NCBI RefSeq assembly: GCF_014696925.1 | Contig: NZ_JACJQY010000007.1 | Location: forward strand, 62,001 to 126,000 | DNA from: Phormidium tenue FACHB-1050 | GTDB taxonomy: Bacteria; Cyanobacteriota; Cyanobacteriia; Pseudanabaenales; Pseudanabaenaceae | Length of the DNA stretch: 64,000 nt | Reading direction: 5' to 3' | Part shown: positions 3,080-23,056 of the stretch, in pieces | How positions within the stretch are numbered: position 1 is the stretch's first letter | How the letters are laid out: every line of letters begins with the position of its first letter | Notes under the pieces: model-generated | Told to the model about the DNA's origin: nothing | Databases searched by the model: none | Seen by the model: only the letters and a program-made list of their open reading frames with translations | Position numbers and translations under genes: made by a program

Positions 3080-3116
3080 AAACTCAAAATAGTCTCTTTA
3101 CTTTACCTTAATTAAA

Positions 3117-6100: not shown

Positions 6101-9100
6101 AGCAATTTTGCTAGAGCAAGCTCGTACAGCAGATGGTCTAGTAGTTGAGTTTTTACCATTGCAGAGACTAGATTCTAACAGCGCTATGCAGTCATCTGTT
6201 CTAGATGAAGCTGATCGACAACGGATGATCAACTGTCGAACTCTAATTGAGTTACTGAACAAGAAAGGAACCTTATCTAGCAGTGCATATGAAACTGCAT
6301 TACAAGATCTCGGAGATCAAAGATATGCAAATTTACCGCCACAGTTACCAGACCATAATGCTCCGATATTTATAAACTCTGAACTAGCAATACTTCTTGC
6401 GGGGTCGGGTTTGCTAGTAAAGATATGTCGGGCTTTTAGAGTGTTTGTATCACCACAGTTCATCCAAGAAGCACAAGCAACAATCACGAGTAGTGATCAT
6501 TCGGCAGAAGTACTTAAATGGCTGAGAGATCTGACACAGCGAGTCTCGACTGGATTACTACAAGGCAAATATAAGATGCTTGCAACTCCACAAACCGTAT
6601 CTGAACAAGAGCATGAACCCTTAAATTCTTGGGATGCAAACGGATTAACCGTCTACGATCTTTTCAGATATACACCTCAGTCTAATGATGTTATCTGGAT
6701 TGATGAACGCTTCTTTAGCAAATACCCTAATCGAGATAATAGTGTTCCTGTTATCGGTGTTTTAGAGATTTTAGAAGCTTTAAGGGGCAATGACGATCTT
6801 AGCGAGTCACAATATTACGAGAAAATACTCCAACTTCGTAAAAGTAACATTCGGTATATTTCTATTGCGAGCAAAGAAATTCTTTATCACCTCAAACAAG
6901 CACAGGTTTCTGACAAAAGAGTTCGAGAGACTGAGGAATTGGAGATTATTCGTCGTTATATTGCTTCATGCCTCCTAGATTCTCAGAGGCTCCAACGTCC
7001 TCCTCTACCAGAAAAATCGCCAAATCCTGATGGTGAAATGATGTTTGTTTTTGAGTGCCTACGTGCAGTACAAATCTCAATCATCAATATTTGGGAAGAT
7101 ACTAGCGTTACAGTAGAAACAGCATTTGCCTATTCGGATTGGATACTCCAAAACTTATATACAGGAATGTTTGGGGTTCAACATCTCTTCCCTAACAGTG
7201 ACCCTAACAGCGATGCACTGGATTTGATTAGCCTTGATATTAGCGAACTTTATTTCCGAGGTATTCAATTATGGCGAATTGAGAGTGAAAGTGCTCATGC
7301 GACTTCTAGCCGTCGCCAAAAATATTTTGAGTGGATCGAACAGCGAATTTCAGAAATGCGCTTTCGAGCAAATCCAGAATTAATCTCCTCTGTTGCACAG
7401 CAAATCAAAGAAATTATGTTTCACTTAGGACGTGAACAAGATCGTGAACAAGAAGAGTCATTGCAACTTGCCAATCGACTCATGCTCAAGGATCTCTTTC
7501 GAGATCTGCCCAGTGTTTTACAAGATGAGCTAAAAACCGATCCTGACTTAATGTCTTATCTTCAAATTCAGTTAGCGGCTTCAATTAATATAGAGTTCCT
7601 AGAGTTGCCTGCTCCATTAATATTTCCTGCTTCAGAGTTTTTTAGCACAGTCGCTTCAGCCATCAATGGTGAAGAATCAACTATCAAAACCTTTCAGCCT
7701 GAAGTTTCATTCAGGGTTTGTACAATTAATCAAACTGACATATCTGTTGAATTTCAATTCATGAATGAGTCAAATTCAAATGTCTATGCATGGCAAGATA
7801 ACTTGATGCTACTTGCATCAGAAAATCCTATTGTACGTGAGCAGGTTTTGCGATCTCATCGAATTTGGTTTGATTGTGATAATTCTACTTTTGAGAAAGT
7901 AGTTAATGAAATAGTTTCAACTTTGGATCTACGCAAACGCATTAACCAAGCAAATCATTGGCACAGTGAATCAGCGGCAATTTTCTACTTGTCTCTTGAG
8001 AATAAAGTCTACGAGAGATCTGAATTCTCAACGGATGACTTAATTCCTCCTTCTGCCGTTGGATTACTTCGACATTTTTACCTAGATCGTTATGCATCGG
8101 AAAACATTAATTTTCATGCTTATCTCAATCAAGCTGCAAAATCTATGCTTGAATCTGAAGACCTTGAAACTTGTATAGAACGCTTTTCTTGTATGCCAGT
8201 AAAGCTTCCACTGCCACTCGAAGAGGCATTTCAACAATTGTCAAATAGTGTTCGCGAGCCTCTTTTACATAGATTAACAGCACGGTTAACTTCCCCAGTA
8301 TGTAAATTACATCTAATTAACTTAGCTCTACTTGTTCCTAACTCAACTAAACTTGCTCAGAATCTCCTTGACGAACTTTACAGTGATGTAGGTAATCTCC
8401 AATTCAAATTCTTTAGGGCAGTTCTTGATCTACTCAACCGTGAGTTCAGTTATTGGCATGAAATGCGGGCATGGTCAGCACCAACTCGCTTAGTAATGAT
8501 TTGGGCTCATACAAGTAAGCTTTATAATTTGCTATACAATCCTGAAGTCATTTTAGAGGAATTTATTCAAAGATTGGAAGAGCATAGCCATCAAAGACAA
8601 ATCAGCGCTGATATTCTTGATCGAGATCCAGAGTTTTGGAACAACGTTCTTCACCTTCGTCACCTAAATAGAATGAATTTAATCGTTCATGGGTTAGCAA
8701 CTATTTTAAAGGATAGAGACCCAGCGATTTTGCAAGCAGCAAAAATTTCTGAAAAAGTGATTGATTTTGCAGTTAAAAACTTGGATGAGCAGCAATTTCT
8801 CAACCCAGAATTATTTCATGACATTACACTTGCTCAGGATAGTATAGAGTCATTTCTTGGTGGAAATCGTAGTGATTGCTTAGGGTATCTACTTGGGGAG
8901 GAATTGGGACACCAAGTTTCATCGGATCATCTGAAGTTGCTTCTAACAAGTGCATTGGATGCTCTAATAAGCGAACCACTTTCTAGTGAAAAATGGCTTT
9001 TAATTACTTGGCTGATTGGAGATTTTCCAATTTACAACGATCTTGTGGGTAAACTTGACAACTTAATTAGAGAAATTAATTTCATTGAACTTTATAGTTT

Positions 9101-9488
9101 AGAGCCTTCTACAGCTTTGTTCGCTTTAACAGTTGCCTGCGATCATACAGCAAATACTATTAATGAAGAACTTCGCGTAAAGTTAGAAAATGAATTAGTT
9201 GAAATTGCTAAATTAATTAACAATCAGGAGCCAAAAGAGCCAGTCAGTGATGAAATTTCTGATCGTTTTATTGAATGTACTTTTAAGCTTACTGTTAGAG
9301 CTAATGACCCTCGCACAACTAGTCTTGCTCTTAATGACTTATTCAAACGAATTTTCTATGTTTGCCCTCGTTTTTTAGGTAGACGTATGATTGGGCTATC
9401 TAGAGGGCTACAGGAACTGCCTGCCAACCAATTACATGGTGCATGGGTAACAAATTTAATAGTTAGAGCTTTATGTGAGCGTCCATAA
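3117..9488 (+). CDS. Giant protein: Mrr-like nuclease domain, TPR-like body, PIN-like segment
   Basis: The predicted protein has 2123 residues. The first ~130 resemble a restriction-endonuclease (Mrr-type) fold with D53 and the strand E65-V-G-Q68-C-K70, matching D...(E/Q)xK. Residues ~190-880 are helical and TPR-like (repeated A-L-A patterns such as LAEEAYALDPKGD). Around 1080-1215 a PIN-like pattern appears, with FINSELAILLAGSGLL, FIQEAQ and WIDERFF (D1196, E1197), but the usual first aspartate is N1087, so this segment may be inactive. The last ~900 residues are alpha-helical and unrecognised. The gene has only one GCGATCGC in 6.4 kb, far fewer than its neighbours, suggesting different ancestry. 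Its position 37 bp after the helicase gene suggests joint action, perhaps target sensing by the repeats and cleavage by the N-terminus. That role is inference. Confidence 0.8.
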   Translation: MLSPRYNPSLPPRFYEMDEYAFEEMCQDLFAAESGIATCNTYGTRGQMQRGIDLLARSDDGKYIEVGQCKCYEDFPPLKIRQVSEAFFKHLDYWKKHKVRRFILFVASELETTDRQDEISNQIKLFQRHKIKYEVWEARTLRQKLSPHHAIALRYLRSQDLVESICGLQPQHTSRISELTIGIFSSKIDRLSSDISKVKALRLDEYRELYHQGKLREARICLDSLRNDEHWDVFDKPLQARILQAISGYTINVEQNADKARSLAEEAYALDPKGDDTLLQVLIAYQSEGAEAALRLIDNTSTINLFNLKLGLLLDLEHTSQVIAALQNLPQGLEPDIETNRIHALALLGNGDIAGAQVKIQQALYEKPNWEKVRATEATINYFSALSSAIPRQLTTYPHPVEWSLIKRDDESLKYLRKAAEEFQRLAYQSELGEHQRKYWQVWHLACLTNDPEQQSEAQELCSTLLSEDPTNPQAITWKMVLNYDIDLSPSQQALETLLQNENIDLERIIALLEIYLYQDTPKKALELLTREKDAFVRTGNEKPWLFWHVQALAASGDIENALQEIEPIDSPEIQRSLRVSILRKKARIDGDGQILVQCLESCWQESKSAIYLLELCQLQASLQNWTYVADKAEDLVNSVGTLTALSLAAECAWQSNRAELCLSLLNDHKQLFPSGTLPTSFGRIKVYCLAQLGLISQGVTEAEELVRSHETAETLTTLIELQLNQGNLRGAAINAFRLLKQENVYPLSLLRIARCLLSEDRNLARELWQRAIGLEITPEILGEVISLGYYLELDRELPPFIHRAQIIALAGGSESPFHSVELNELLEMQQNWANNTQEIYKKYDESDFPIHLIAQTLRFPLTKVFHVLPKTNASNSNPYFQVAILARYGARPFPEFFVDSTTKWRLHLDISAFLLAAHLGILDAVERRFSPIHISQSLPKALLQECEYFQPHQPSRLYAYREILRLHQASQLQQHSESLLPSSNELVEQLGEHSAILLEQARTADGLVVEFLPLQRLDSNSAMQSSVLDEADRQRMINCRTLIELLNKKGTLSSSAYETALQDLGDQRYANLPPQLPDHNAPIFINSELAILLAGSGLLVKICRAFRVFVSPQFIQEAQATITSSDHSAEVLKWLRDLTQRVSTGLLQGKYKMLATPQTVSEQEHEPLNSWDANGLTVYDLFRYTPQSNDVIWIDERFFSKYPNRDNSVPVIGVLEILEALRGNDDLSESQYYEKILQLRKSNIRYISIASKEILYHLKQAQVSDKRVRETEELEIIRRYIASCLLDSQRLQRPPLPEKSPNPDGEMMFVFECLRAVQISIINIWEDTSVTVETAFAYSDWILQNLYTGMFGVQHLFPNSDPNSDALDLISLDISELYFRGIQLWRIESESAHATSSRRQKYFEWIEQRISEMRFRANPELISSVAQQIKEIMFHLGREQDREQEESLQLANRLMLKDLFRDLPSVLQDELKTDPDLMSYLQIQLAASINIEFLELPAPLIFPASEFFSTVASAINGEESTIKTFQPEVSFRVCTINQTDISVEFQFMNESNSNVYAWQDNLMLLASENPIVREQVLRSHRIWFDCDNSTFEKVVNEIVSTLDLRKRINQANHWHSESAAIFYLSLENKVYERSEFSTDDLIPPSAVGLLRHFYLDRYASENINFHAYLNQAAKSMLESEDLETCIERFSCMPVKLPLPLEEAFQQLSNSVREPLLHRLTARLTSPVCKLHLINLALLVPNSTKLAQNLLDELYSDVGNLQFKFFRAVLDLLNREFSYWHEMRAWSAPTRLVMIWAHTSKLYNLLYNPEVILEEFIQRLEEHSHQRQISADILDRDPEFWNNVLHLRHLNRMNLIVHGLATILKDRDPAILQAAKISEKVIDFAVKNLDEQQFLNPELFHDITLAQDSIESFLGGNRSDCLGYLLGEELGHQVSSDHLKLLLTSALDALISEPLSSEKWLLITWLIGDFPIYNDLVGKLDNLIREINFIELYSLEPSTALFALTVACDHTANTINEELRVKLENELVEIAKLINNQEPKEPVSDEISDRFIECTFKLTVRANDPRTTSLALNDLFKRIFYVCPRFLGRRMIGLSRGLQELPANQLHGAWVTNLIVRALCERP

Positions 9489-9645
9489 AAGCTACATCAT
9501 TTTCTCAGATGAAGCTCAAAATAATTAACGATATAAAAAATAAGTCGTAGCTAAAATACTAAAACGAAGTTTGCTCTCGTAACTTTTATGTAGCGAATTT
9601 TCAAGGAAACTGCTGAACGGATTAATCATGTCAAACCCCTATGTA

Positions 9646-9812
9646 GGGGTAGCTACAGGATACATGGAAAAACCTGCAAGATAGCCATCAAAGCTATATA
9701 TAGAGAGGATTTCAAAAACATGTTTTTTGCCTTTCGTGTTAAAAAAATCAACGGTATAATGCGCGTTTGCGACCGATCTCGCAGGTTTTTCCATGTATCC
9801 TGTAGCTACCCC
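9646..9812. repeat. MITE-like element, copy 1 (37-bp terminal inverted repeats)
   Basis: A 167-bp segment begins GGGGTAGCTACAGGATACAT and ends with the complement of that sequence. The terminal inverted repeats are 37 bp with one mismatch. There is no credible gene inside: the 62-codon minus-strand frame is mostly inverted repeat, and the second copy breaks it with a 1-bp length change. A ~96% identical copy lies reversed at 19882-20049. The left border is TA; the right border is GA. The rest of 9489-9847 (downstream of the giant gene and of the convergent helicase gene) shows no gene and no strong terminator. Confidence 0.85.
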
Positions 9813-9847
9813 GATTAGTTCGCTCAAATAGCCTCAAACAACTCAGA

Positions 9848-12800
9848 TCATAAATGATCGCTGATAACTACATAGGTTGGTTTGGCTACTTCATAGACTG
9901 ATGGTGATATTTTTTTGAGAAAACTCATTCCTTGGTCTAATAGAATTCGGTAATGCTTACGGTCCTGTCTGTAAATTTCTAGTGATCTCCCATGATCAAA
10001 ATGTTGGCGATCGCGTAATGGCTGCTGTGTAACTGTGGCTTTGATTGGGCTTAAAGCTTTCTCAATTTCCGCACGTCGGTTTGGTGGCTGCTCTTTCTGC
10101 TCAAGAATACGCACTGATATTTGGACCTTAGCTTGTAGCCAAATACCCTGTAAGAGATCGGCGAGAATTTCTGCTTCTTGGGGTTGCAAATAGCGATCGC
10201 TGTAGGTAATTCGCTTGATTTGTTGATTTTGTAGGATTGTTGTTAAACCTAATTGATCGCGAAGTTCTTTGAGTGTCAGATTTTGCCATTGGGAATCTTG
10301 AGGATTGGGATAGATAACTTGAGTATCAGGATCATTGAGTTGTGATGCGAGAACTGAATGCGATCGCAAGTTTTCTAAACGCGCTCTCACAAATTCGTAA
10401 CCTTGATTACTACGAGTTTCAAGCCATGTGATCTCTTCTGTATCTGGATGTAATTTAAGCGCAATGGGACTTTGCGAACGCATTTGCATAACTAGTTCAG
10501 GATATTTACCATGATTATCAGTTTGATGAACTTCGAGTGATTTTTGGTCAATCCACTGAGCAAGACGCTTTCTGAGAAATAATTGCTCATCAGAATTAGG
10601 TCGAGGAAGTTCATGGAGAATTAATTTTATTGGATTTTCTGAATCTTTAATTAGAACCTCTAAATGCTTGAACCAATTTAGCCCTGTTTTGGATTCATCA
10701 AAACTAGGTAAATACCAAATAGCTGATACCGCCTGACGGCAATAGCTCAGGAAATTGCTATTGACTTTGAGCAAAGCAACTTGATGAGCATCTGGAGCAA
10801 AACTTGTTAGTGTTTCATTCGGTTCTATTTTTTCTAATAATGGTTTGAGAAACTCTATAACTGCGTAGCGATCGAGTTCTGCATGGAAAATCTGATTAGA
10901 ATAGGTGCGTAAGCAGTCATAGCAGCTACTACCGCAATCGCAAGACTGGACTAATTCGTATGTTCTTTGTAAAATTGCCTGAAACTGTCTGGCAATTTGT
11001 TGAGCATAGCCTGCACCTCCTGGCACATTGTCATAGATCACGATTTCGGCGATACCATTGCTATTTTGGATGGGTTGAAATAAGCCATCAAGTTCATTGC
11101 GTGGCACGTCAATCACCTGTGCGGCGGCAGCAAGCAAAGCATAGAGTAGAGATCGCCAAAAGCCTGTATTAGTTGTAGTCTCTTCCGTTTGGGTAGCAAT
11201 TTCATGACCATCAGCGAGATGGGTGACTTGTTGAAATAATCGGTATTGATTAGGAATATGACTAAATCGAACTTTTAATAAATCACTGCGAAACTCATGA
11301 CCTAAATGGATGCGGGTACATCCTCCCGTACATTCCCTGCCATCATTAGGACGAGTATGTTTTCCTTTTTTAATTTGATCATGGTTGAGATCACGCCCGC
11401 AAAAATTACAGATGGCAAAACCTTGATCGCTCTTACCCTTATTTGCTAAGAAAAATACTCCATTTTGGCTACAGGTTAGGCTATAAGCCTCGCTAGACGC
11501 ACCGAATGTTTCAGGTTTACTGCCGTCCTGCGCTAAAAACACCTGTGAAGTGGGTTGACGCATTGGCTTTTCGTAGGGAGTTACGCGAGGGGCTTGGGTT
11601 TGGTCGGTCACAAAAGCGGTGGGAACTCGGTACTGTCTCGTTTTCGCTTTCGCCGCAGATGAAGGAACTCTTTGACAGGTTGGGCAAGGATTTACAACTG
11701 CTTCTTGCTGCTGTGATTGAAAGTGATTGCAATGTTCGCAAACCCAGTAGTATCGTTTTTCTAAAGTGTCGGCTCGAAATACGCCAACGCTGGTATGTAC
11801 GCGGTCATCGACAACGACATCTTGACTGGGGGCATATTCTCCCAGAGCCAGACGGCGATCACGTTCTAGTCGATGTCTGTTTTGCCCTGCATTTTGACGG
11901 TAGCCACTGCTTTCATTAGTCATTAGGCGCACTACGTCAATCGGGAATCCATAGATCGGTAATATACTTGCTCTTGCCAATTCATCATGGAGACGGCGAT
12001 CGCCTATTTTTTCAAGTTCTCTTTGAATAGATGCCATGCGATTCGCGATACTTTGAATATTCTGAACTTCTGACGGATCGGTTAATCGTTGGTGTTGTGC
12101 TAATCGTTCGTTAGCCAAAGCGTTCCAATCGGAAATTTGTGATGCAATCAGATCATGAATAATCCTTGTATTGAAGTTACTAAGAACTATGTTAGGTGTC
12201 TCTGTGGAAGTACTTCCTAACCGATTTAGCCATAGTTGTGTAATCGCTCTAGCGGCATCAGAGTTTAACCAGTTTTGAAATTCTGCACAGATTGAACCTG
12301 TAGGTATAGTTCCATTGATTAATGGTATAAATGTAGTGATTGGTAGATCAAAGAATTCGCTAATTTTCACGTTTTCCGCAGCGAGGGCAGTGGTCAGATT
12401 CTCCCTTAAAAATGCTGCTAATAATTCAGCACGAATATGACGCTCTTGGATGTTGAAATTAGCAGGATCTAGTTTTGGGATCAGATTTTTCCCTGCGATT
12501 AACTTTTCAGGACGCTCGAAATAATAGCGATCATGGGGACGGCGTTGACCATACATCAGCGTGACTGCTACACCATCGGTACGTCTGCCTGCGCGTCCTG
12601 CACGTTGCTGATAGTTGCTAACATGGGGCGGAAAATTTCGTAAAGCTACGGCTTGGAGTTCTCCAATATCTACACCCATTTCCAATGTTGTAGAGCAACT
12701 TAGGAGATTAATCCAACCCTGACGGAATAGGCTTTCCCGTTGCGCTAGTTCATTTGTACCAAGTTGGGCGGTATGCTCGGCGGCACGGATGGCAATAGGT

Positions 12801-15800
12801 GATCGCTTGCCGATTAAATAGCGATAGTGATGATCGGCTAGTTGATTCCCTGAAAAAACTTCTAATCTGCCATTACATTTATTCGCCCGACAGGTGTAAT
12901 GGTTGCTGATGTCTGGCAAGGTTCCTAGCTCAGGAATATGGAAGATTTGCTGGCAGGTTTGGCATTGATACCAGTCTTCATTGGTTTCATAGAGATTTAA
13001 TAATTGCCAGTTGAGTCGAGATTCTTGTCCAGTTAGACTTAACAACTTATTTCTAAAAACATTTTCATACAGCCAATAGAGATGGTTATTGCTCTCTACT
13101 TCTGAATAATTGGGAAACACTTTCTCGAAATACAGAAACAAAGAACTTTTAATAATGCGATTGTTACTGGCTCGATAAGATCGTAAAGAAACTGCATTAG
13201 CATCATCCCCAGCCGCCTTTTGTAGTTTCAGATAACTCTTTAGCTTCCCGCCACTTAAAGCTGGTGGTCGTCCGCCAGCAACGCCACCTAGTTCAGGAAA
13301 GTAATCAGAGGGATTTTTGAGATCGACTAATCCCGCCTGACGGATGATATCGGTTAACCCTAGTAAGAATATTTTTGCCTCCGTATTGCTAATTTGGAAA
13401 TAGTTTGCAGTTGCTTGAATCTGCTCTTCACTAATATAAATATGACAGGCGAGTAAGCCCAAAGCCTCGATAGAAAAACGTCTTGCTGATGGCAGCCCAA
13501 ATTCTCTTAGTAATAACTCTTTGGCACGTTGGTGCGATCGCGTTTCACACTCCAAAGGATTTTTTGTAGTACCTTCTAATGGGTTCACATCATTTAGGAT
13601 ATAGCTACGATGATGCCATTCACTATTGCGATCGGGATGCGGAATAGAATTTTGTAAAAATTGTTGATAGAGCTTTTGTTCTACACCACCAATTGAAGCA
13701 ATTCCATCACTATTTTTGTCATTCTGAAAAGCTTGCCATACAGTTTGACGATAAAGTGCTTCGGTATGGGTGCGCTGATAGTGAGAGGCAAAGAATGAGG
13801 CATCTTGACGACCATCGGAAAAGGTCAAGAGTTTACGCTTTGTCGCAATATTTGTATTTTCATCATTTTGACTTGGTTCAGGTAATAGCCCGAATAGACT
13901 ATCAATAATCACTTCGAGAGGTGCGTCTGTACTGGATGCAAAACGCCGTAAACTAGGAGTATCACTTCGTCCCGCACCACAGGCAGGGCATTTGGATAAG
14001 TATCCCACTTTGTTGTCTTTATCGAGATGCAGAACTAAAGGATATTGTTTGCCATTGACAGGTGGAAGATTTGGGCTTGATTTTGAAGATGATTTAGATT
14101 TAGCTTTTGATTTCCCTTTGGGTGTTACCTCTGGTAAGTTCAAAATTGGCTGTCCTAGCCAACCCATACCATGATTTTCTTCATACAGGATAAATTGAGA
14201 AAAACTCAGGCTGTTTTGACCTTCAGGATTAGGCTCTGGAAATTCTGTCTCTTCTTCCTCATCCTCGGTAATGCTATCTAAACTGCCTGAAGTAAGAGTA
14301 TAGACATTGTCCTTGTTTTCTATAGCAGCAAGCGATCGCGGTAAAGTTGTAAGCTGATTACCGTCAAGCCTGACTAAGCTATAAGCCTGTCCACATTTGC
14401 GACAACTAGAAATCTCGATTACAGGTGATTGGCAATCTTCACATTTAGTTTTTTCGCTCAAATAAAGTCTGCCATAACGATTAGGATTAGGATTATGCGG
14501 GTCGCGTACTTTTCCTGAACATTCAGGATTTACACAGGCAAATAGTCCCTCGATACTACGGAATAGTAAATGTAATCTGACTGGCAGTAATGGTAAATCA
14601 TTCTCATTTTTCCTTGCCAAAGTTCCCAACTGGATTAAGTTGGCTAGAGCTTGTTTCAGTTGTTGCTCAACTTCAGCAGAGATTTCGCCATTTAGTGTTA
14701 ATGGATATTGCCAAAGATCACGCGATCGCCAAATTTGATCCCAAGGTTGTGGTGTTTTCAGGATTTGAATTAATTTATGAATGCTAGGATGTTGTTTGAT
14801 CGCATACCATAAGAATTTATGAACCTCATGATTTGCTTGAGTTTGAGCTAATTCTAAAATCTCATGGGGAACAAGTACATCTAATATCTTTCTCCATTCG
14901 TCAATAGGAGCAGTGAGAGGTAATAAATCTTTCGGTAGCATTGCCCAAAGTTCATAAATATCTTCTGCGGCTAGACCTAGTGGATAAGGCTTACCCAATC
15001 TATCATCCGCTTGACGGCGATCGCCTCGAATTACCTGTGCAAAATTTTCGCTAAAAAGCTGTCCCGCAAATTCAAGAACTTGAGGGTCTGAGGAGCGATC
15101 GCCTAAGCTTGCGCTTGTACCAATACAACGAATTGTGCCTTTTTCCTCTTTACCCACTGCGCTTTTGAGGCGACGGATTAGCATGGATACTTCTGTACCC
15201 GTTGAACCGTTATAGCTGTGAGCTTCATCAACTACCAACATTTTGAAAGTGCTACGCGATCTCTCAAAAATATCTGTGCGTTCTCTGGGACGCATCAGCA
15301 TATATTCCAACATGGAATAGTTGGTAACAAGGATATGGGGCGGATTTGTCCAAATTTCTTCACGGGAAATAGCTTGTACTTGTTTTGTTCTCTCGATGGC
15401 TGCTTGTACTAAATCATCAAGCGATCTCCCCTGCATTGCTGCTTGTTGTGCAACGGGTAGAAGCTGTAATAGTTCACTTTTTTCGTAACCTCTCAGTTCA
15501 TCTCTGAGAGAATTTGTGGCTTTATCGTCAGTTCTTTCAGTGCGACTGGTATAAAAACCAAAGCGAATTTTAGGTTGATCTTGTTGGCAGAGTAACTGAC
15601 GTAAGCGTTTTACCTGATCATTAACCAGTGCATTCATCGGATAGAGAATTAATGCTCTGACCCCACTCGCTAAACTTTGATCCTTGAGCAACATATCCAA
15701 CATCGGTATTAGGAAACATTCTGTTTTCCCTGAACCTGTCCCCGTTGCCACGATGATATTTTGATTTTGTTCAACCACGGCTCTGATTGCCGATTCTTGG

Positions 15801-16072
15801 TGTTGATACAATAGGCGATCGCTTGGTAAAAGATTGACAGTGTTTGAATGTAGAACCTTCTGCCCTACTAATTGTCGAATGCTCTGCCCCGATTCATAGG
15901 GTTGAGAACCTTCTAAATAGGGTGTTTGCCAGACATTGCTAACCTGATCTAGCAATTGCTTAAAGCCGTAACGCAAATGGGAATCTCTGAGAGAATACTC
16001 TGTTAACAGATAACGGATAAAATCACGGCGGGGTTCTTCAGTAGCGGCAATGGGGTTAAGGTAGTTAGACAT
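9848..16072 (-). CDS. Large DEAH helicase with zinc-binding clusters and DUF1998-type C-terminus
   Basis: The protein has 2074 residues. Lobe 1 has Walker A GTGSGKT at residues 111-117, VVDEAHSYNGS for motif II and GTSASLGDR for motif III. A long insert carries Cys clusters (CVNPECSG, CEDC..CRKCG, CPACG). Lobe 2 has FSDGRQDASFF, TLEMGVDIG and QQRAGRAGRR. More Cys clusters (CEHC..CPTC, CNFCGRD) precede a DUF1998-type end with DNVPGGAGYA and CDCGSSCYDCLRTY. About 300 unrecognised residues follow. The design resembles MrfA/YprA helicases and the very large helicase of Druantia; DISARM DrmB also carries DUF1998. It is the last gene of a three-gene operon, 95 bp after the 401-residue gene, and has many GCGATCGC sites. 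The helicase identity is firm; assignment to a named defence system is not. Confidence 0.9.
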   Translation of the reverse strand: MSNYLNPIAATEEPRRDFIRYLLTEYSLRDSHLRYGFKQLLDQVSNVWQTPYLEGSQPYESGQSIRQLVGQKVLHSNTVNLLPSDRLLYQHQESAIRAVVEQNQNIIVATGTGSGKTECFLIPMLDMLLKDQSLASGVRALILYPMNALVNDQVKRLRQLLCQQDQPKIRFGFYTSRTERTDDKATNSLRDELRGYEKSELLQLLPVAQQAAMQGRSLDDLVQAAIERTKQVQAISREEIWTNPPHILVTNYSMLEYMLMRPRERTDIFERSRSTFKMLVVDEAHSYNGSTGTEVSMLIRRLKSAVGKEEKGTIRCIGTSASLGDRSSDPQVLEFAGQLFSENFAQVIRGDRRQADDRLGKPYPLGLAAEDIYELWAMLPKDLLPLTAPIDEWRKILDVLVPHEILELAQTQANHEVHKFLWYAIKQHPSIHKLIQILKTPQPWDQIWRSRDLWQYPLTLNGEISAEVEQQLKQALANLIQLGTLARKNENDLPLLPVRLHLLFRSIEGLFACVNPECSGKVRDPHNPNPNRYGRLYLSEKTKCEDCQSPVIEISSCRKCGQAYSLVRLDGNQLTTLPRSLAAIENKDNVYTLTSGSLDSITEDEEEETEFPEPNPEGQNSLSFSQFILYEENHGMGWLGQPILNLPEVTPKGKSKAKSKSSSKSSPNLPPVNGKQYPLVLHLDKDNKVGYLSKCPACGAGRSDTPSLRRFASSTDAPLEVIIDSLFGLLPEPSQNDENTNIATKRKLLTFSDGRQDASFFASHYQRTHTEALYRQTVWQAFQNDKNSDGIASIGGVEQKLYQQFLQNSIPHPDRNSEWHHRSYILNDVNPLEGTTKNPLECETRSHQRAKELLLREFGLPSARRFSIEALGLLACHIYISEEQIQATANYFQISNTEAKIFLLGLTDIIRQAGLVDLKNPSDYFPELGGVAGGRPPALSGGKLKSYLKLQKAAGDDANAVSLRSYRASNNRIIKSSLFLYFEKVFPNYSEVESNNHLYWLYENVFRNKLLSLTGQESRLNWQLLNLYETNEDWYQCQTCQQIFHIPELGTLPDISNHYTCRANKCNGRLEVFSGNQLADHHYRYLIGKRSPIAIRAAEHTAQLGTNELAQRESLFRQGWINLLSCSTTLEMGVDIGELQAVALRNFPPHVSNYQQRAGRAGRRTDGVAVTLMYGQRRPHDRYYFERPEKLIAGKNLIPKLDPANFNIQERHIRAELLAAFLRENLTTALAAENVKISEFFDLPITTFIPLINGTIPTGSICAEFQNWLNSDAARAITQLWLNRLGSTSTETPNIVLSNFNTRIIHDLIASQISDWNALANERLAQHQRLTDPSEVQNIQSIANRMASIQRELEKIGDRRLHDELARASILPIYGFPIDVVRLMTNESSGYRQNAGQNRHRLERDRRLALGEYAPSQDVVVDDRVHTSVGVFRADTLEKRYYWVCEHCNHFQSQQQEAVVNPCPTCQRVPSSAAKAKTRQYRVPTAFVTDQTQAPRVTPYEKPMRQPTSQVFLAQDGSKPETFGASSEAYSLTCSQNGVFFLANKGKSDQGFAICNFCGRDLNHDQIKKGKHTRPNDGRECTGGCTRIHLGHEFRSDLLKVRFSHIPNQYRLFQQVTHLADGHEIATQTEETTTNTGFWRSLLYALLAAAAQVIDVPRNELDGLFQPIQNSNGIAEIVIYDNVPGGAGYAQQIARQFQAILQRTYELVQSCDCGSSCYDCLRTYSNQIFHAELDRYAVIEFLKPLLEKIEPNETLTSFAPDAHQVALLKVNSNFLSYCRQAVSAIWYLPSFDESKTGLNWFKHLEVLIKDSENPIKLILHELPRPNSDEQLFLRKRLAQWIDQKSLEVHQTDNHGKYPELVMQMRSQSPIALKLHPDTEEITWLETRSNQGYEFVRARLENLRSHSVLASQLNDPDTQVIYPNPQDSQWQNLTLKELRDQLGLTTILQNQQIKRITYSDRYLQPQEAEILADLLQGIWLQAKVQISVRILEQKEQPPNRRAEIEKALSPIKATVTQQPLRDRQHFDHGRSLEIYRQDRKHYRILLDQGMSFLKKISPSVYEVAKPTYVVISDHL

Positions 16073-16167
16073 TTCTTTGTGATGAGTTAAATGTTTACAA
16101 GGGATTTGAGGATTTAGAGAACTGGATAAAACTCCTGAATTCGATCACCTTTTATGAGTTCTCCCAT

Positions 16168-17373
16168 TTAGATAGTTTGACAACCTAGTTTTTTCAAAAT
16201 CTGTTCAACTTGTCTACGCCGATTAGGTTCGACATAGCGATCGCGATTATCGGTATCGGTTGGATTCGAGAGTCGCCATAAACATTGAGCATAGCCGCTA
16301 GGCAAGTTCACACTTTTGAGATCCAGATGACCGCGATCGCTGTCCCACACAACCCTAATCGGCTGTCCAGATTCTCGATCTAATGTGAACATTGCTAAAA
16401 TTGCCGCATCTTTCTCTAGTTGATAGAATATTCCCTGCTCATGCCATAAATATTCACCCGTAGGAAGTCTTAATAAGTCAGGATTGTAGATTGTACTACG
16501 GCTCGGCTCTCGCCAGCGATCGCTTTGTTCTCCCCACTGTGGCACATAGTGCAGAATTCCAGCATAATCATGATTTACAAATGGATCTTCAACATCATAT
16601 CCGCGCAGCATTGGAGTTAATGGGAGACTTGGCGCTGGCAAATGTTGCAGACTTTGCGCGATCGTAGTCAAGCTAATTCCACGTTCTGAAAACTTTTGTT
16701 GGAGAACTTCAAAACTCAGATCTGGGAATACCAGTTCATTAGTTTCCGTGACGGGATTTCCCAATACTTGATGAGCAAGGGGTAAGTAAGCGCGATCGCC
16801 TATAAATAATGCTTCTTCGTACAGCACAGTTGGATGGGCAATACAAAAGCGATTGCCGACACCTGCATAAATCTCTCCCTTTGTCTCTAGTTCCCTAAGT
16901 GAAGATTCTAATTCTTTGATTAGTTTATCCTGTGGATAATCAGGACTAAGGCTAGATTCTAGGACAGATAAAATTTGTCTTTTTGTGAGAGTGAGAGGTT
17001 TTGATTGAGTAACAGGTGATCGATGATTACTAAGTATAGTAACTATCTTGACAGCAATATCTTGGTTAACTGAATTAACAATCACTTTTCCAGTCGGTAG
17101 CTTATCTTTCTCTTTACCCGTTGATCTTGAGATATTTCCTTCAATTAAACCTCCAGCAATTTTCCAATCTCTCTCTTTACAAGCTAGCCTTAAAATACGG
17201 CGAACATCACCAGCTAATAGTTCTGAGTCGATTTCAATATAAAACTCTGTTCTTAAATCTCTCTCTTCTGGGATGATAACTCTAACATTGAGTTGAGCCA
17301 GTCTAATTTGTCTCTCAAGTTCGGCGATAACGGAGTTTCTTTGTCCTCTAAGAATTTGGTGCATATATCGCAT
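16168..17373 (-). CDS. Protein of unknown function in the helicase operon (401 residues)
   Basis: I recognise no family. The N-terminal ~110 residues are basic and mixed, followed by a stretch of paired helices (KRQILSVLESSL, IKELESSLRELETKGEIYAG) resembling a winged-helix fold. The C-terminal half is rich in Trp, Tyr and Pro with no obvious catalytic motif. There is no signal peptide or membrane segment. The gene lies 10 bp after the upstream 690-residue gene and 95 bp before the helicase gene on the same strand, so the three are very likely co-transcribed. It may be a DNA-binding accessory subunit of the helicase; that is inference from context alone. Confidence 0.7.
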   Translation of the reverse strand: MRYMHQILRGQRNSVIAELERQIRLAQLNVRVIIPEERDLRTEFYIEIDSELLAGDVRRILRLACKERDWKIAGGLIEGNISRSTGKEKDKLPTGKVIVNSVNQDIAVKIVTILSNHRSPVTQSKPLTLTKRQILSVLESSLSPDYPQDKLIKELESSLRELETKGEIYAGVGNRFCIAHPTVLYEEALFIGDRAYLPLAHQVLGNPVTETNELVFPDLSFEVLQQKFSERGISLTTIAQSLQHLPAPSLPLTPMLRGYDVEDPFVNHDYAGILHYVPQWGEQSDRWREPSRSTIYNPDLLRLPTGEYLWHEQGIFYQLEKDAAILAMFTLDRESGQPIRVVWDSDRGHLDLKSVNLPSGYAQCLWRLSNPTDTDNRDRYVEPNRRRQVEQILKKLGCQTI

Positions 17374-17383
17374 AATCTTTACC

Positions 17384-19453
17384 TCATTCCACTTCTGTTA
17401 ATATCTCGATTAATTTCTGAGAATTGCCAAGTCTGACCCATTCTAAAGTATAGCGATCGCTATCTAGTAAAACTTCCCGCAAAGACATCAGAGACAAATT
17501 TAAACAACCTGTTTGATCTGCTTGGGTAGAATAATTGTATTTCTGATTCTCCTCACTGCCAGATAGGACAAAGATCACTGGCTCAAAGGACCATAGCCCT
17601 TGAATTGTAATCTGTTCTTCCCAAAAGTCACTCCTGCCATGACATCGAATTGGCAAGATCGTAGGTATTTCGGGATGCCTTGAACTTTGAATTTGAATTG
17701 GTTGCGTATTGATGTTTGCTGAGATTTGGCTTTGAGACTGAATCGTAAATGCTGCTGACCAACTCCAATTTCCCTGCCAAAGTCTGACTTCATAATTGCC
17801 CGTAGTCTTACATTGATTCAGTTTGATCTCTTGCCATGCTTCACCAGTCATCAGCTTTACTGAGATTTTCTCATCAGGTTCAGTAATAGTTTTTTGAAGA
17901 TCCATATCTTCAATTTGAATACGGATAGCCTCCACTGAATCACCCAAGGGATAATAAATTTGTGGTGCTTCTAGATAAATTGGTTTCTTGCCCTTGATTT
18001 GCAATCCTCTCATAGTTGGCTGTCTACTGCTTGCGACCTGCCATTTCACAGAAATATCAATGTTTTCTCCAATCATTTTAAAAGTTGCCGATCGCCCGTT
18101 TAGTCGGATCTGTTTTGCTTGCCAGTTTTGGATTAAACAGGGAAAACAAGCATCGGTTACTTCAATGTCGCTATTTGTCTGCAAATTGGTATGAGCAGGG
18201 AAATAACAAACTAATTCATTAATCCCCGTGATTTGTGGATTTTCTGAATTCAGGTTAAGGCGATCGCCTGTTTCTGCATCAAAAATTAGCAGTGGAAAAT
18301 TATCGTTAATTCCTTCACAATGCCACTCGATTAAATCGCATTTATTTGCGTCTTTGAGCTGCCATGTCCAGTGATCGCTTAAATCATGCAAGTTAACGCA
18401 TAGCTCAGGAACCTCTAGACTATTAGGATAGTTAATGTTAGATTCCCATTTAGTCTGAGGAATTCGACAGAAGCTATTGTTTAAGTTTCTCCATTCTTTC
18501 CGCCATAGACTCTGCTCTGGTAAAGCAAGCTGAAGATTTAGCTCTAAGGTATCTAGACGTAATGCAAGTTCACGCTTTCTTTGCCGAATTACTTGATTTG
18601 CTCTTGTTGATGTTACCTGTCGAGGTGTTAAGACTGATGCGAGATTATCCCAATTTCTGAGAAAGAAGTTGTAGGGCAAGCTTAATCCTTGTAGACATTT
18701 CTCTCTTTCTTTCTCGTTTTTGAGAATGCTAGGATCTTTTTGCCTACGTTGTAGCTCTAAGGCAACTGTAGCAATATATTTGAGAAGTTGACCAGATAAC
18801 GGCTTGTCAGATTCACTGGTGACATCATCTAAGCAATTCTTAAGAAAACGTCTAAGAGTTTTTCTTGTTGAATGATTTTCTACGGCAAGATCATACAAGG
18901 TTTGGGCAAGGTCGATTTCGTTGTAGCGATGAACAATATTCCACCAACCCAAATTATTGGCAACATATTTCAGCAACTCAGCAAAATGGGGCAGAGTTCT
19001 TTGTGGAATACCGCTTTGTAAATATAGCGTTGAAATATATTTGTAGCCCCCTTTAGCTCTAACCACGCCAAGTAAAACAAAACCTTCTCTGAGGATATTA
19101 TAAAAAGTTGGCTTTGCCCCTTGAGGATCGCTGATTCTTAGTCTCACAAAAAGGCTATCCCAAAAACCAGCTTCTGAGTCGTTGTAATAGGCATACTCAG
19201 ATAATAAAAAGGTAATGATTTTTACCCAGTTACGATTTTGGCGATCGCCCCACCGATGATTTAGTCTGTCAATTGATATTGTGCCTATATTTGATAAATT
19301 TTCCGCTAATGCATCAAGCAGAGCATTGACTGAATTTGAGGAAAATTTGTTATTCCCCAGAAATCTTGATCCTTCAGGCTTTTGGAGATCGCGCAAAATT
19401 GGCTTAATCTGTTCCCACACACATCTTGTATGTTCGGGACTACTAAAATTCAT
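17384..19453 (-). CDS. Protein of unknown function, first gene of the helicase operon
   Basis: The ATG at 19453 gives 689 residues; a TTG four codons upstream is possible but has no better ribosome-binding site. The N-terminal ~280 residues are helical (for example VNALLDALAENLSNIG, TLRRFLKNCLDDV). The C-terminal ~400 residues look beta-rich, with repeated Ig-like strands such as IRIQIEDMDLQ and YEVRLWQGNWSW. There is no signal peptide, membrane segment or nuclease/ATPase motif I can see. It heads the operon with the 401-residue protein and the large helicase. Sizes and order (about 690, 401, 2074) are loosely reminiscent of the C-D-E part of Druantia type I, but no signature supports that. 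The GCGATCGC content resembles the helicase gene, so the operon seems to have a common history. Confidence 0.7.
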   Translation of the reverse strand: MNFSSPEHTRCVWEQIKPILRDLQKPEGSRFLGNNKFSSNSVNALLDALAENLSNIGTISIDRLNHRWGDRQNRNWVKIITFLLSEYAYYNDSEAGFWDSLFVRLRISDPQGAKPTFYNILREGFVLLGVVRAKGGYKYISTLYLQSGIPQRTLPHFAELLKYVANNLGWWNIVHRYNEIDLAQTLYDLAVENHSTRKTLRRFLKNCLDDVTSESDKPLSGQLLKYIATVALELQRRQKDPSILKNEKEREKCLQGLSLPYNFFLRNWDNLASVLTPRQVTSTRANQVIRQRKRELALRLDTLELNLQLALPEQSLWRKEWRNLNNSFCRIPQTKWESNINYPNSLEVPELCVNLHDLSDHWTWQLKDANKCDLIEWHCEGINDNFPLLIFDAETGDRLNLNSENPQITGINELVCYFPAHTNLQTNSDIEVTDACFPCLIQNWQAKQIRLNGRSATFKMIGENIDISVKWQVASSRQPTMRGLQIKGKKPIYLEAPQIYYPLGDSVEAIRIQIEDMDLQKTITEPDEKISVKLMTGEAWQEIKLNQCKTTGNYEVRLWQGNWSWSAAFTIQSQSQISANINTQPIQIQSSRHPEIPTILPIRCHGRSDFWEEQITIQGLWSFEPVIFVLSGSEENQKYNYSTQADQTGCLNLSLMSLREVLLDSDRYTLEWVRLGNSQKLIEILTEVE

Positions 19454-19582
19454 TTTACAACCCAAAAATCTATATTTTTAATTATTCTAACTATAATATG
19501 AGTATTTGATATGTTTTTTTGAGATAAAGTACACGGATATTTTGATTTGCATAGCTTGAATTCTAGATTTAAAGCCAACTAT

Positions 19583-19841
19583 AACGGGTGCGACCTTCAT
19601 ATTTGGACTTTGGACAAAGTTAAAAACTACGCTATTAGTGGTGGTTTAGATCTCAAATCACAGGCTAAAAAACGCTACCTACAACATTTGTCCAAAATCC
19701 AATCATATGATACCTTCTCAAATTAGCGAAATCTTTGCCTAGCAGAGCTTTCATCAAATCCATTCAAAATTATTTCCTTAATTAGGGGAAGCCAGAATCC
19801 TTACACCGTAACGGGTTATCAAGTAGAGGTCGCACCCCGTT
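19583..19841. repeat. Nested inverted-repeat segment, MITE-like remnant
   Basis: Outer arms AACGGGTGCGACCT (from 19583) and AGGTCGCACCCCGTT (to 19841) are complementary apart from one extra C. Inside them, TTTGGACTTTGGACAAA near 19601-19618 pairs with TTTGTCCAAAATCCAA near 19688-19704. There is no coding frame of note. The segment lies just upstream of the helicase operon start and outside any gene. It looks like a short non-autonomous element or degraded IS; a TA border is not evident. Confidence 0.45.
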
Positions 19842-19881
19842 CAACTAATCCACAAGCTTCTAATTTTCGTAAGTTTTGAAT

Positions 19882-20049
19882 GGGGTAGCTACAGGATACA
19901 TGGAAAAACCTGCAAGATCGGTCGCAAACGCGCATTATACCGTTGATTTTTTTTAACACGAAAGGCAAAAAACATATTTTTTAAATCCTTTCTATATATA
20001 GCTTTGATGGTTATCTTGCAGGTTTTTCCATGTATCCTGTAGCTACCCC
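19882..20049. repeat. MITE-like element, copy 2 (inverted relative to copy 1)
   Basis: A 168-bp element with perfect 37-bp terminal inverted repeats, beginning GGGGTAGCTACAGGATACAT and ending in its complement. Read in reverse complement it matches the copy at 9646-9812 with about five substitutions and a one-base length difference in a T run. The right border is TA; the left border is AT. Together the two copies bracket the helicase operon. Confidence 0.85.
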
Positions 20050-20543
20050 TATGTATATATTAATTATGTGAGTTCAAAAACATATCCTGAAATTATTGCA
20101 GAATTCTAATCTTGACTATACACATATAAATACTACTTTAACTTGAATTATTCACTATGATTTTGGTAAATAGTTAAAAGCGTTGAACTTTAAGGGAGGC
20201 AGATTTAGTGATAAAGGCAGTCTGCTTTCTTAATGTTTTTTACTACAAGCTATCTCCAGTATGGACTTTAGAGACAGCCTTTAGTACTGACGAATAATTC
20301 AAGATAAGTGGGTTCAACATACGAGTTTTTAAACCTATGTCAAAAATAATTTTAAATATATGCTTTAATCTTCAACTTGTCTTAGAAACATCTTAGAGCA
20401 AATAATCATACATTATTTGTTCTATGATTTAAACGAATGAGTATTTATGCTTATTTTGGCTGACGTGTTTTCAAGGTTTCAGGGCTTTGCTTGGCGCGTT
20501 GTTATATATTGAAGAGGTGTCTGCCCGTTAGTTAGCTGTCGTT
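20050..20543. other. Intergenic stretch without recognised gene
   Basis: An AT-rich 494-bp stretch between MITE copy 2 and the AAA ATPase gene. No frame above about 40 codons with plausible composition is visible. It presumably holds the promoter of the ATPase gene, but I see no clear -35/-10 pair or operator. Confidence 0.5.
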
Positions 20544-22088
20544 ATGAAAAAATGGTTTAATACTGCTGGTCCTTGTAAGGCTGACATTCACTACATGTTG
20601 TCAGCCACAGATCGCTTGCCTGAAATCAAACAACTAATTGCTCAAGAAAATTATTTTGTGATCCATGCACCAAGGCAGGTGGGTAAAACTACAGCGATGT
20701 TGGCACTTGCCCAAGAACTAACTGCTAGCGGTCAGTATACGGCGGTAATGTTATCTCTGGAAGTGGGGGCCGCTTTCTCTGATGATTTGGGAGCAGCTGA
20801 ACTGGCTATTTTAGGTGAGTGGAAGCAATCGATACGGTTTCGGTTGCCCAAAGATTTGCAACCTAACCAGTGGTTAGATGCCGAAGCAGGAGCGAGAATT
20901 GGTACAAACTTAAGCAACTGGGCTGAACAATCTTCCCGTCCATTAGTTGTCTTTTTGGATGAAATTGATGCCTTGAGCAACGAAACGTTAATTTCTGTAT
21001 TAAGACAAATCCGATCTGGTTTTCCTAATCGTCCCCAGGGATTTCCGCAGTCGGTTGCGTTGGTGGGGATGCGTGATGTGCGGGATTATAAATATGCGTC
21101 AGGGGGAAGCGATCGCCTAAATACTTCTAGCCCTTTCAATATCAAAGTACGCTCTTTTACTTTGAGTAATTTCACCCTTGAGGATGTGAGGAATCTCTAT
21201 CACCAACATACGGAAGCCACAGGACAAATATTTACACCAGAAGCAGTTGATTTAGCCTTTCATTTGACACAGGGACAGCCTTGGTTAGTGAATGCGATCG
21301 CTAAGGAAATAGTTGAATATATTGCACAAGACCCAGTCACTCCAATTACAGTTGAGTTAGTAAGTCAAGCAAAAGAGATCTTGATTAAGAGACAAGATAC
21401 GCATCTGGATAGTCTTGCAGAAAGGTTGAGAGAAGATAGAGTCAGAGCAGTGATTCAGCCTATTCTTGCGGGGCAGGAATTGCCAGATGTGCCACAGGAT
21501 GATATTCGCTACGTTTTAGATTTGGGACTTTGTACCAATCAAGATGGTCTGGCTATTGCTAATCCTATTTATCAGGAAGTCATACCAAGAGTGCTTGCCT
21601 ATGTAACAACTGCGTCAATAGGATATGTTCGACCAATCTGGCTAAGCAAGCAAGGCGAATTTTTGCCTGAGCGCTTGTTAGAAGCGTTCTTATTATTCTG
21701 GCGACAGCATGGAGAACCATTGTTTGGAAGCACGCCCTATCCAGAGATTGCTCCACATATAGTATTGATGGCTTTTCTGCATCGGGTTGTTAATGGTGGT
21801 GGTACTTTGGAGAGAGAATATGCGATCAGTTCTGGGCGTATGGATATTTGTTTGCGCTATGGTAAGGTGACTTTGGGAATGGAGTTGAAGGTATGGCGCG
21901 ATAAGAAGCCTGATCCAATTAAGGAAGGATTATCGCAGTTGGATAAATATTTATCGGGATTGAGTTTGGATACAGGTTGGTTGGTAATATTCGATCGCCG
22001 TTCTGGGTTGCCGCCGATAAGCGATCGGACTACTACTGAGAATGTCATCAGTCCCGCAGGTCGAGAAATCATTGTGATTCGTGGATAG
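20544..22088 (+). CDS. AAA ATPase with C-terminal PD-(D/E)XK-like motif
   Basis: A 514-residue protein. The N-terminal P-loop domain has Walker A APRQVGKTT near residue 43 and Walker B VVFLDEIDAL near 133, the arrangement of the COG1672-like / AAA-ATPase-like group. After a winged-helix-like linker, the C-terminal 100 residues contain SGRMDICLRYGK followed by MELKVW, matching D...ExK of the PD-(D/E)XK nuclease-like domain that often closes these proteins. The substrate is unknown; the family is widespread in mobile and defence regions. The integrase gene follows after 23 bp on the same strand, suggesting a shared transcript. Confidence 0.85.
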   Translation: MKKWFNTAGPCKADIHYMLSATDRLPEIKQLIAQENYFVIHAPRQVGKTTAMLALAQELTASGQYTAVMLSLEVGAAFSDDLGAAELAILGEWKQSIRFRLPKDLQPNQWLDAEAGARIGTNLSNWAEQSSRPLVVFLDEIDALSNETLISVLRQIRSGFPNRPQGFPQSVALVGMRDVRDYKYASGGSDRLNTSSPFNIKVRSFTLSNFTLEDVRNLYHQHTEATGQIFTPEAVDLAFHLTQGQPWLVNAIAKEIVEYIAQDPVTPITVELVSQAKEILIKRQDTHLDSLAERLREDRVRAVIQPILAGQELPDVPQDDIRYVLDLGLCTNQDGLAIANPIYQEVIPRVLAYVTTASIGYVRPIWLSKQGEFLPERLLEAFLLFWRQHGEPLFGSTPYPEIAPHIVLMAFLHRVVNGGGTLEREYAISSGRMDICLRYGKVTLGMELKVWRDKKPDPIKEGLSQLDKYLSGLSLDTGWLVIFDRRSGLPPISDRTTTENVISPAGREIIVIRG

Positions 22089-22111
22089 ATAACTAATCAA
22101 TTGATATAGAT

Positions 22112-23056
22112 ATGTCCATTCCAGAACCAATTTTAGTTGTTTATAGTGAACCGCCCAAAGCGATCTCCGCCACAGACTTGCGCCAATCACGAGTTGATGA
22201 ATTTTTAGCATCAAGGTCTTTGCAGCCTAAGAGTCGTAAAGCTTATCAAGCAGACTTGCGGATATTTATGGATTGGTGCGATTTAGCTTGGGTGGATGTG
22301 AGTCGTCGTAAAGTGACGCAGTTTAAAACTTTTTTGCTGAAAGAGCGTGAGTTGGCGCTGAGTTCGGTGAATCGGGTGTTGCGGACTCTGAAATCTTTTT
22401 ATCGGTGGATGTTGCTCTCGGAATATGTGACGGCTGATCCGACAATTGGCATTCAGCAGGAAAGATTGCCAGATCCTGTGGCAAAGGATTTGGAAGATGA
22501 GGAGGTGTTGCGGATTTATGAGGCGATCTCGTTAGGTAAGGTGGTGTTGCGCGATCGGGCTTTGTTTTCGATTTTGTTGCATGGGTTGCGGGCGGAGGAG
22601 GTTTGTCGTTTGAATATTGAAGATTACGTGAATGGGGAATTGGTGATTAAAGAAGCGAAGTGGGATAGTAAGGGGGAAGTGCCTTTGACAAAGTTGGGTA
22701 TTCAGGATTTGGATGCTTATTTGGATTGGAGGAAGGAGAAAGAAGGAGAGTTGTCGGATGAAAGTCCTTTATTTGTATCTTGCTCCAATCGTAGTCAAGG
22801 TAAGCGCTTAACCTATTGGGGAATTCGTCATGTGATGGACGATCTGGCTGAGAAAACGAGGATTGATTTGCATTCGCATCGAGGACGGCATACATTTGCG
22901 ACGAATTTGATTGTGAAGTATGAGTTAGACCCGTCTTTGGCGATGGAGTTGACGCGCCATCGTGATGTTAGGAGTTTTAGACGTTATACGAATCGCAAAA
23001 ATAAGATTGCGGCGAAACGTGCTTTTTTGAAAGCGTCGGAGAGATTGGAGCATTGA
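22112..23056 (+). CDS. Tyrosine recombinase / phage-type integrase
   Basis: A 314-residue Xer-like site-specific recombinase. The N-terminal SAM-like DNA-binding part (SRKAYQADLRIFMDWC) is followed by the catalytic domain with Arg I in LLHGLRAEEVCRL, HxxR in LHSHRGRHTFATNL, a later His in LTRHRDVRSF and the Tyr nucleophile in RRYTNRK. All key residues are present, so it is probably active. It cuts and rejoins DNA through a 3'-phosphotyrosine link. It sits next to an AAA ATPase gene and MITE-like elements, in keeping with an integrating island. No flanking tRNA or att repeat was found in this window. Confidence 0.92.
   Translation: MSIPEPILVVYSEPPKAISATDLRQSRVDEFLASRSLQPKSRKAYQADLRIFMDWCDLAWVDVSRRKVTQFKTFLLKERELALSSVNRVLRTLKSFYRWMLLSEYVTADPTIGIQQERLPDPVAKDLEDEEVLRIYEAISLGKVVLRDRALFSILLHGLRAEEVCRLNIEDYVNGELVIKEAKWDSKGEVPLTKLGIQDLDAYLDWRKEKEGELSDESPLFVSCSNRSQGKRLTYWGIRHVMDDLAEKTRIDLHSHRGRHTFATNLIVKYELDPSLAMELTRHRDVRSFRRYTNRKNKIAAKRAFLKASERLEH

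What the first reader, a model, noticed from the sequence alone, without database searches (positions are those of the whole stretch)
9646..20049. Three-gene helicase operon bracketed by inverted MITE-like elements
Copies at 9646-9812 and 19882-20049 are about 96% identical, reversed, with 37-bp terminal repeats. The outer borders of the pair carry TA, the inner borders do not (GA and AT). That is what a composite 10.4-kb unit moved by a TA-targeting transposase would leave. The left outside flank (ACCCCTATGTA) also matches the sequence spanning the right outer border.
Basis: partly seen in the sequence, partly recalled or inferred. Interest (0 to 1): 0.75.

Follow-up and report, generated by a model that had tools for sequence, protein, structure and literature searches.

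The report
Tn3-type miniature elements bracket Druantia-like operon
In a Pseudanabaena-group cyanobacterium, a three-gene, probably anti-phage operon built around a giant Druantia-type helicase sits between two inverted 167-bp Tn3-derived miniature elements, and the border sequences indicate that the whole 10.4-kb block was moved as one unit by a borrowed transposase.

Summary
In detail: two inverted, 96%-identical 167/168-bp elements with 37-bp terminal repeats bracket the operon. The flank duplication is 6 bp (TATGTA), not TA, and neither copy has a duplication of its own. The same repeats bound 4.7-kb Tn3-family transposons (TnpA with DDE_Tnp_Tn3, tyrosine recombinase) on plasmids of a congener, Pseudanabaena galeata CCNP1313. 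So these are Tn3-derived miniature elements (TIMEs), and the unit is a TIME-COMP, a known kind of non-autonomous composite. The host genome has no Tn3 transposase, so the unit looks stranded. The cargo is a Druantia-type DruE helicase (2074 aa) with two proteins that match nothing in Pfam, PADLOC or NCBIfam. The same A-B-DruE operon occurs, without such elements, in 20 of 24 cyanobacterial loci found with gene A, so it is a conserved system independent of its vehicle. Predicted folds: A = helical domain plus Ig/FN3-like string, like the sensor DruH only in broad outline; B = winged helix plus alpha/beta domain. No empty site was found, so movement as a unit is inferred. Vehicle: new member of a known kind. 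Cargo: apparently uncatalogued Druantia variant.

The parts
9635..9645 (.). left outer flank: 11-mer ACCCCTATGTA ending in the 6-bp target duplication TATGTA (9640-9645)
   Evidence: sequence; flank comparison; the 11-mer occurs only here and at 20045
9646..9812 (+). left TIME (Tn3-derived miniature element), 167 bp, with 37-bp inverted repeats
   Evidence: same ends bound Tn3-family transposons in P. galeata
9848..16072 (-). druE-like gene: 2074-aa YprA/MrfA-type DEAH helicase with MrfA Zn-binding domain
   Evidence: Pfam, PADLOC DruE1 4.9e-238 and DruE3 5.6e-225, solved relative 9tu7 2.9e-98
16168..17373 (-). gene B, 401 aa: predicted winged-helix domain (about 105-180) plus alpha/beta C-terminal part; no family match
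17384..19465 (-). gene A, 693 aa: predicted helical N-terminal part (1-280) and a string of Ig/FN3-like beta-sandwich domains (295-690); no family match
19882..20049 (-). right TIME, 168 bp, inverted relative to the left copy
20050..20055 (.). right copy of the 6-bp target duplication TATGTA

Best explanation
Window 9646-20049 is a 10,404-bp TIME-COMP: a non-autonomous composite transposon bounded by two inverted copies of a Tn3-derived miniature element. A Tn3-family TnpA supplied in trans (of the kind still carried by plasmids of Pseudanabaena galeata) recognised the two outermost 37-bp ends and inserted the block as one unit, duplicating TATGTA. Shown: the repeats, the outer-only duplication, the Tn3 identity of the ends, and the absence of a Tn3 transposase from this genome. 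Inferred: the replicative Tn3 route and the transposition event itself. The cargo is a conserved cyanobacterial operon A-B-DruE. By analogy with Druantia III it most likely acts against phage DNA: A (Ig-like string) as infection sensor, B (winged helix) as DNA-binding adaptor, DruE as 3'-ssDNA-loading helicase. The division of labour is inference.
For: Exact 6-bp direct repeat at the outer borders (chance for a random pair of sites 3.6e-4), with no duplication around either copy alone and no signature of inversion or intramolecular replicative transposition. The ends are shared by complete Tn3 transposons with 988-aa TnpA (DDE_Tnp_Tn3, 8e-153; DUF4158) and a tyrosine recombinase; 3 of 8 complete copies examined keep 5-bp duplications, the rest being apparently rearranged. 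TIMEs are published to give 5- or 6-bp AT-rich duplications (PMC4133298), and TIME-COMPs with inverted TIMEs of up to 11.4 kb and one with a 6-bp duplication (TGTTTA) are known (PMC13367494). In 4 of the 6 genomes of this genus that hold two full copies (the window's own included), the copies lie within 10.4 kb of each other (chance about 4e-9 if independent); the pair in G008 has a 5-bp outer duplication AAGGC. No Tn3 TnpA in the own genome. Cargo: DruE by PADLOC and by the solved DruE structure; operon conserved without TIMEs in 20 of 24 loci.
Against: No empty site or second copy was found. Tn3 duplications are usually 5 bp, here 6. The pairs in G022 and G011 lack outer duplications. The two TIMEs are 96%, not 100%, identical, so the unit is not fresh. 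The extra 5-bp match ACCCC left of the duplication is unexplained. The TIME interior does not match the autonomous transposon's interior. Defence activity of the operon is untested.
Confidence: 0.78

Rival explanations
1. The two TIMEs inserted independently on either side of a resident operon; the TATGTA match is chance or reflects a preferred target sequence.
For: TIME families like AT-rich targets (PMC4133298); pairs in G022 and G011 have no outer duplication; the operon lies beside other island genes in relatives without TIMEs.
Against: Neither copy has a 5- or 6-bp duplication of its own, and the only matching pair of the six flank pairings is the outer one. The only two full copies in 5.63 Mb lie 10 kb apart, as in three congeners.
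Confidence: 0.13
2. The block entered as a circle by recombination at the 11-bp sequence ACCCCTATGTA, perhaps using a tyrosine recombinase, and not by Tn3-type transposition.
For: The 11-mer occurs exactly twice in the window, at the two borders. A tyrosine recombinase gene lies 2 kb to the right (22112-23056).
Against: Five of the 11 bases on the right are simply the element's own end. The recombinase belongs to a separate multicopy cassette that starts about 20374. I know of no such mode for Tn3-type ends.
Confidence: 0.05
3. The elements are MITEs of an IS630/Tc1-type transposase that targets TA.
For: TA at both outer borders.
Against: The ends are those of Tn3-family transposons with 5-bp duplications; 37-bp ends starting GGGG; the repeat is 6 bp.
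Confidence: 0.01
4. An ordinary inversion: homologous recombination or intramolecular replicative transposition between two TIMEs created the inverted pair.
For: Inverted TIMEs are known to invert their interior (PMC13367494).
Against: It predicts that left-outer and right-inner (and left-inner and right-outer) flanks match as inverses; they do not. A later inversion of the interior inside a TIME-COMP would leave no trace in the flanks and is not excluded.
Confidence: 0.03

Closest known systems
TIME-COMP elements of Pseudomonas and Enterobacteriaceae (TIME-COMP1/2, TIME244, IS101, MITESen1; PMC4133298, PMC13367494)
   Same: Two miniature elements with about 38-bp Tn3-type ends, inverted or direct, no transposase inside, 5- or 6-bp outer duplication, size up to 11.4 kb
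   Different: Cyanobacterial, TIME only 167 bp, cargo is a defence-type operon (published cargoes read here: resistance genes, a plasmid replication module, a resolvase); res site not identified
Autonomous Tn3-family transposon of Pseudanabaena galeata CCNP1313 plasmids (4,693-4,694 bp, e.g. L115-L117)
   Same: Outer 37 bp of the ends match at 35/37
   Different: Encodes TnpA and a tyrosine recombinase; its interior shows no match to the TIME interior
Druantia type III (DruH + DruE)
   Same: DruE family helicase (26% identity over the helicase core to the E. coli protein); a large partner with several Ig-like domains
   Different: Two partner genes in place of DruH; no sequence similarity of A or B to DruH; cyanobacteria only in our search
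Druantia types I, II and IV
   Same: DruE family helicase; best PADLOC score is to DruE1
   Different: None of the partner models (DruA-D, DruF, DruG, DruL, DruM) matches A or B

Membership tests
TIME (Tn3-derived inverted-repeat miniature element) | short element without transposase gene, with about 38-bp inverted ends of a Tn3-family transposon | tested here: met
   167/168 bp, 37-bp ends; same ends on P. galeata Tn3 transposons
TIME-COMP | two TIMEs bracket unrelated cargo | tested here: met
TIME-COMP | 5- or 6-bp target duplication at the outer borders only | tested here: met
   TATGTA at outer borders; none at the borders of single copies
TIME-COMP | transposes as a unit when TnpA is supplied in trans | not testable with these tools
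   needs a trap-plasmid experiment; no empty site found
TIME-COMP | resolution site inside the TIME (seen in some, e.g. TIME244) | tested here: inconclusive
   TIME interior versus autonomous elements no better than shuffles; not obligatory
IS630/Tc1-type MITE | TA duplication and ends of an IS630/Tc1 element | tested here: not met
   duplication is 6 bp, ends are Tn3-family
Druantia (DruE helicase) | large YprA-type helicase with DUF1998/MrfA Zn-binding domain | tested here: met
Druantia type III | DruH partner | tested here: not met
   no PADLOC match for A or B at E<=10; profile comparison with an E. coli DruH gave no match, though that side was a single sequence
Druantia types I, II, IV | DruA-D, or DruM/F/G, or DruF/L partners | tested here: not met
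   no PADLOC match for A or B or their homologues
[quoted passage not shown]
   A and B match no helicase or methyltransferase family; the SNF2 helicase at 107-3079 lies outside the unit on the other strand
any anti-phage system | protects cells from phage | not testable with these tools
   no assay possible

The most novel reading that the evidence does not exclude
Tn3-derived miniature elements act in Pseudanabaena as a general vehicle that picks up and moves whole operons, including an undescribed Druantia type (A-B-DruE) in which an Ig-domain protein unrelated in sequence to DruH is the phage sensor. It would be the first defence system known to travel in a TIME-COMP.
Probability: 0.4. Interest if true: 0.6.

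Novelty: new variant of a known kind. Interest (0 to 1): 0.45.

Why it matters
Defence systems are known to move on integrases, prophages and satellites. A pair of 167-bp miniature elements that carries a complete 10-kb operon with no transposase of its own would be a cheap, easily missed route, and standard annotation would show no mobile element here. The operon itself is a recurrent cyanobacterial DruE system that the defence library searched (PADLOC 2.0) recognises only by its helicase, so its two partner families are candidates for a new Druantia type.

Tried and rejected
Search for an empty site with the two outer flanks joined, in 58 genomes: only the own two flanks matched. Viral contigs with the terminal repeat and with the predicted empty site: no match. 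Independent insertion, inversion and intramolecular replicative transposition were tested on the four flanks and did not fit. A degenerate older copy left of the unit (to explain ACCCC): not above shuffles. A resolution site shared by the TIME interior and the parent transposon: not above shuffles. Promoter inside the TIME driving the operon: no more consensus hits than in shuffles. Adjacency of the AAA-ATPase/recombinase pair to DruE in G005 and G018 first looked like a shared ancestral locus; it is a multicopy cassette in this genome, so it says little. Foldseek matches of A are all generic Ig/FN3 strings and those of B cover mainly the winged helix; neither names a family. Two literature searches for a defence operon in a TIME-COMP or for a cyanobacterial Druantia operon found none, in a library that lacks most subscription papers.

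Full report
Observation. They are inverted, differ at 5 bases and one gap in 168 columns, and carry 37-bp terminal inverted repeats. A search of the own genome (5.63 Mb, 89 contigs, 99.98% complete) finds no other full copy and one 42-bp remnant of an end.

Borders. Written towards the element, the four flanks are: left outer ...CCCCTATGTA, left inner ...ACTAATC, right inner ...TTTTGAAT, right outer ...TATACATA. Only the two outer ones match, as an exact 6-bp direct repeat TATGTA. Two random sites of this window share a 6-mer with probability 3.6e-4. Independent insertions would give each copy its own duplication. An inversion, or an intramolecular replicative event, would make outer and opposite inner flanks inverse matches. 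Neither is seen.

Parent. Congeners carry the same family. Complete elements with these ends occur many times in G022, which is Pseudanabaena galeata CCNP1313 (plasmid coordinates agree). The full element (4,693-4,694 bp; larger where other insertions sit in it) encodes a 988-aa TnpA with DDE_Tnp_Tn3 and DUF4158, a tyrosine recombinase and a small HTH/zinc-ribbon protein. Three of the eight complete copies examined (L035, L116, and the copy across the start of C5) keep 5-bp duplications; the flanks of the others look shuffled between copies, as replicative elements do. These are Tn3-family ends. TIMEs, the Tn3-derived miniature elements, are published to make 5- or 6-bp AT-rich duplications and to form composites (TIME-COMPs) in direct or inverted orientation (PMC4133298); TIME-COMPs of 1.3 to 11.4 kb with resistance genes are listed in PMC13367494. 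The own genome has no Tn3 transposase by profile or by TnpA query, so the unit cannot move here unaided.

Pairs. Full-length copies of the TIME family were found in eight genomes of the genus, counting the window's own. Six have two copies, and in four of these the two lie within 10.4 kb (G000, G008, G011, G022), against about 4e-9 expected for independent insertions. The G008 pair has a 5-bp outer duplication AAGGC which, when closed up, restores an intact hairpin repeat. The G022 pair brackets a nitrile hydratase operon on plasmid pPg_02; it and the G011 pair show no outer duplication.

Cargo. The 2074-aa protein is a DruE-family helicase: PADLOC DruE1 4.9e-238 and DruE3 5.6e-225, Pfam DEAD, Helicase_C and MZB, and the solved structure 9tu7 at 2.9e-98. 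Its partners A (693 aa) and B (401 aa), with their longer or shorter homologues, match nothing in PADLOC, NCBIfam or the PDB sequences, and nothing significant in Pfam. A scan of GTDB species genomes with A returned 24 loci, all cyanobacterial (Nostoc, Komarekiella, Tolypothrix, Leptolyngbya, Hydrococcus, Thermosynechococcus and others). By tblastn, 20 of them carry A, B and DruE in this order, sometimes with broken genes, 13 have a WYL-type regulator gene upstream, and none has the terminal repeat. So the operon is an independent, conserved system and the TIME pair is particular to this genome. Within the genus, relatives at 88-92% identity (fragments in G005 and G009) also lack TIMEs.

Mechanism. 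AlphaFold models from 17-19 relatives give A a helical N-terminal part and a string of Ig/FN3-like domains (mean pLDDT 78), and B a confident winged helix (residues 105-180) with an alpha/beta C-terminal part (pLDDT 79). In Druantia III, DruH carries three Ig-like domains and is the proposed sensor, while DruE is the helicase-nuclease that loads on 3' single strands (PMC13192584). I therefore propose A as sensor, B as DNA-binding adaptor and DruE as effector. Ig strings are common, A shows no sequence similarity to DruH, and this remains an analogy. It works like Druantia in its effector; membership in types I-IV failed on the partners.

Surroundings. To the left lie a BrxHII/DrmD-like SNF2 helicase (107-3079) and a 2123-aa protein with Mrr-type nuclease and double-PIN-upstream HTH domains (3117-9488). 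To the right, an AAA-ATPase plus tyrosine recombinase cassette begins at about 20374 and is multicopy in this genome, followed by a metal-resistance region. Thus the unit landed in, or helped build, a defence-rich island.

Verdict. The composite is supported and best named a TIME-COMP; the TA/IS630 mechanism is wrong. The event itself is inferred, since no empty site was found in any collection searched. The vehicle is a new member of a known kind; the cargo is a variant of a known kind whose partner genes are in none of the libraries searched.

Noticed in passing
window 20374-22500 (and beyond): AAA-ATPase (514 aa) plus tyrosine recombinase (314 aa) cassette is present in further copies at 75-83% identity on contigs C49, C53 and C22 (two in tandem) with fragments on C56; left boundary about 20374-20377. 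It may be a mobile cassette in its own right.
   Followed up: partly
window 107-9488: Adjacent SNF2/BrxHII-DrmD-like helicase and a 2123-aa protein with Mrr-type nuclease and HTH_upstream_double_PIN domains; looks like another two-gene defence candidate.
   Followed up: partly
L037 301-8362 (P. galeata plasmid pPg_02, NZ_CP112876): A directly repeated pair of the same TIME family brackets a nitrile hydratase operon with HupE and a CobW-like GTPase, next to a Tn3 transposase fragment; no outer duplication found.
   Followed up: partly
L041 2001-2769 (G008): A 769-bp direct TIME pair with a 5-bp outer duplication AAGGC inside a GC-rich hairpin repeat; a small TIME-COMP with a clear closed-up site.
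   Followed up: yes
gene A and B in window and L076/L089: In this clade A lacks about 270 C-terminal residues present in most relatives while B carries about 100 extra N-terminal residues. The missing end of A (WYLV...VP...YLLVRL...) looks NusG-N-like by eye only.
   Followed up: no
window 23939-62311: Metal-resistance region: three P-type ATPases, CusA/AcrB-type pump, HlyD/CusB, multicopper oxidase, outer-membrane efflux protein, VKOR protein.
   Followed up: partly
L072 (G005) 4801-5163: The 92%-identical DruE of G005 is cut at about residue 1028 by what looks, by eye, like an ISAs1-type transposase fragment at the contig end.
   Followed up: no
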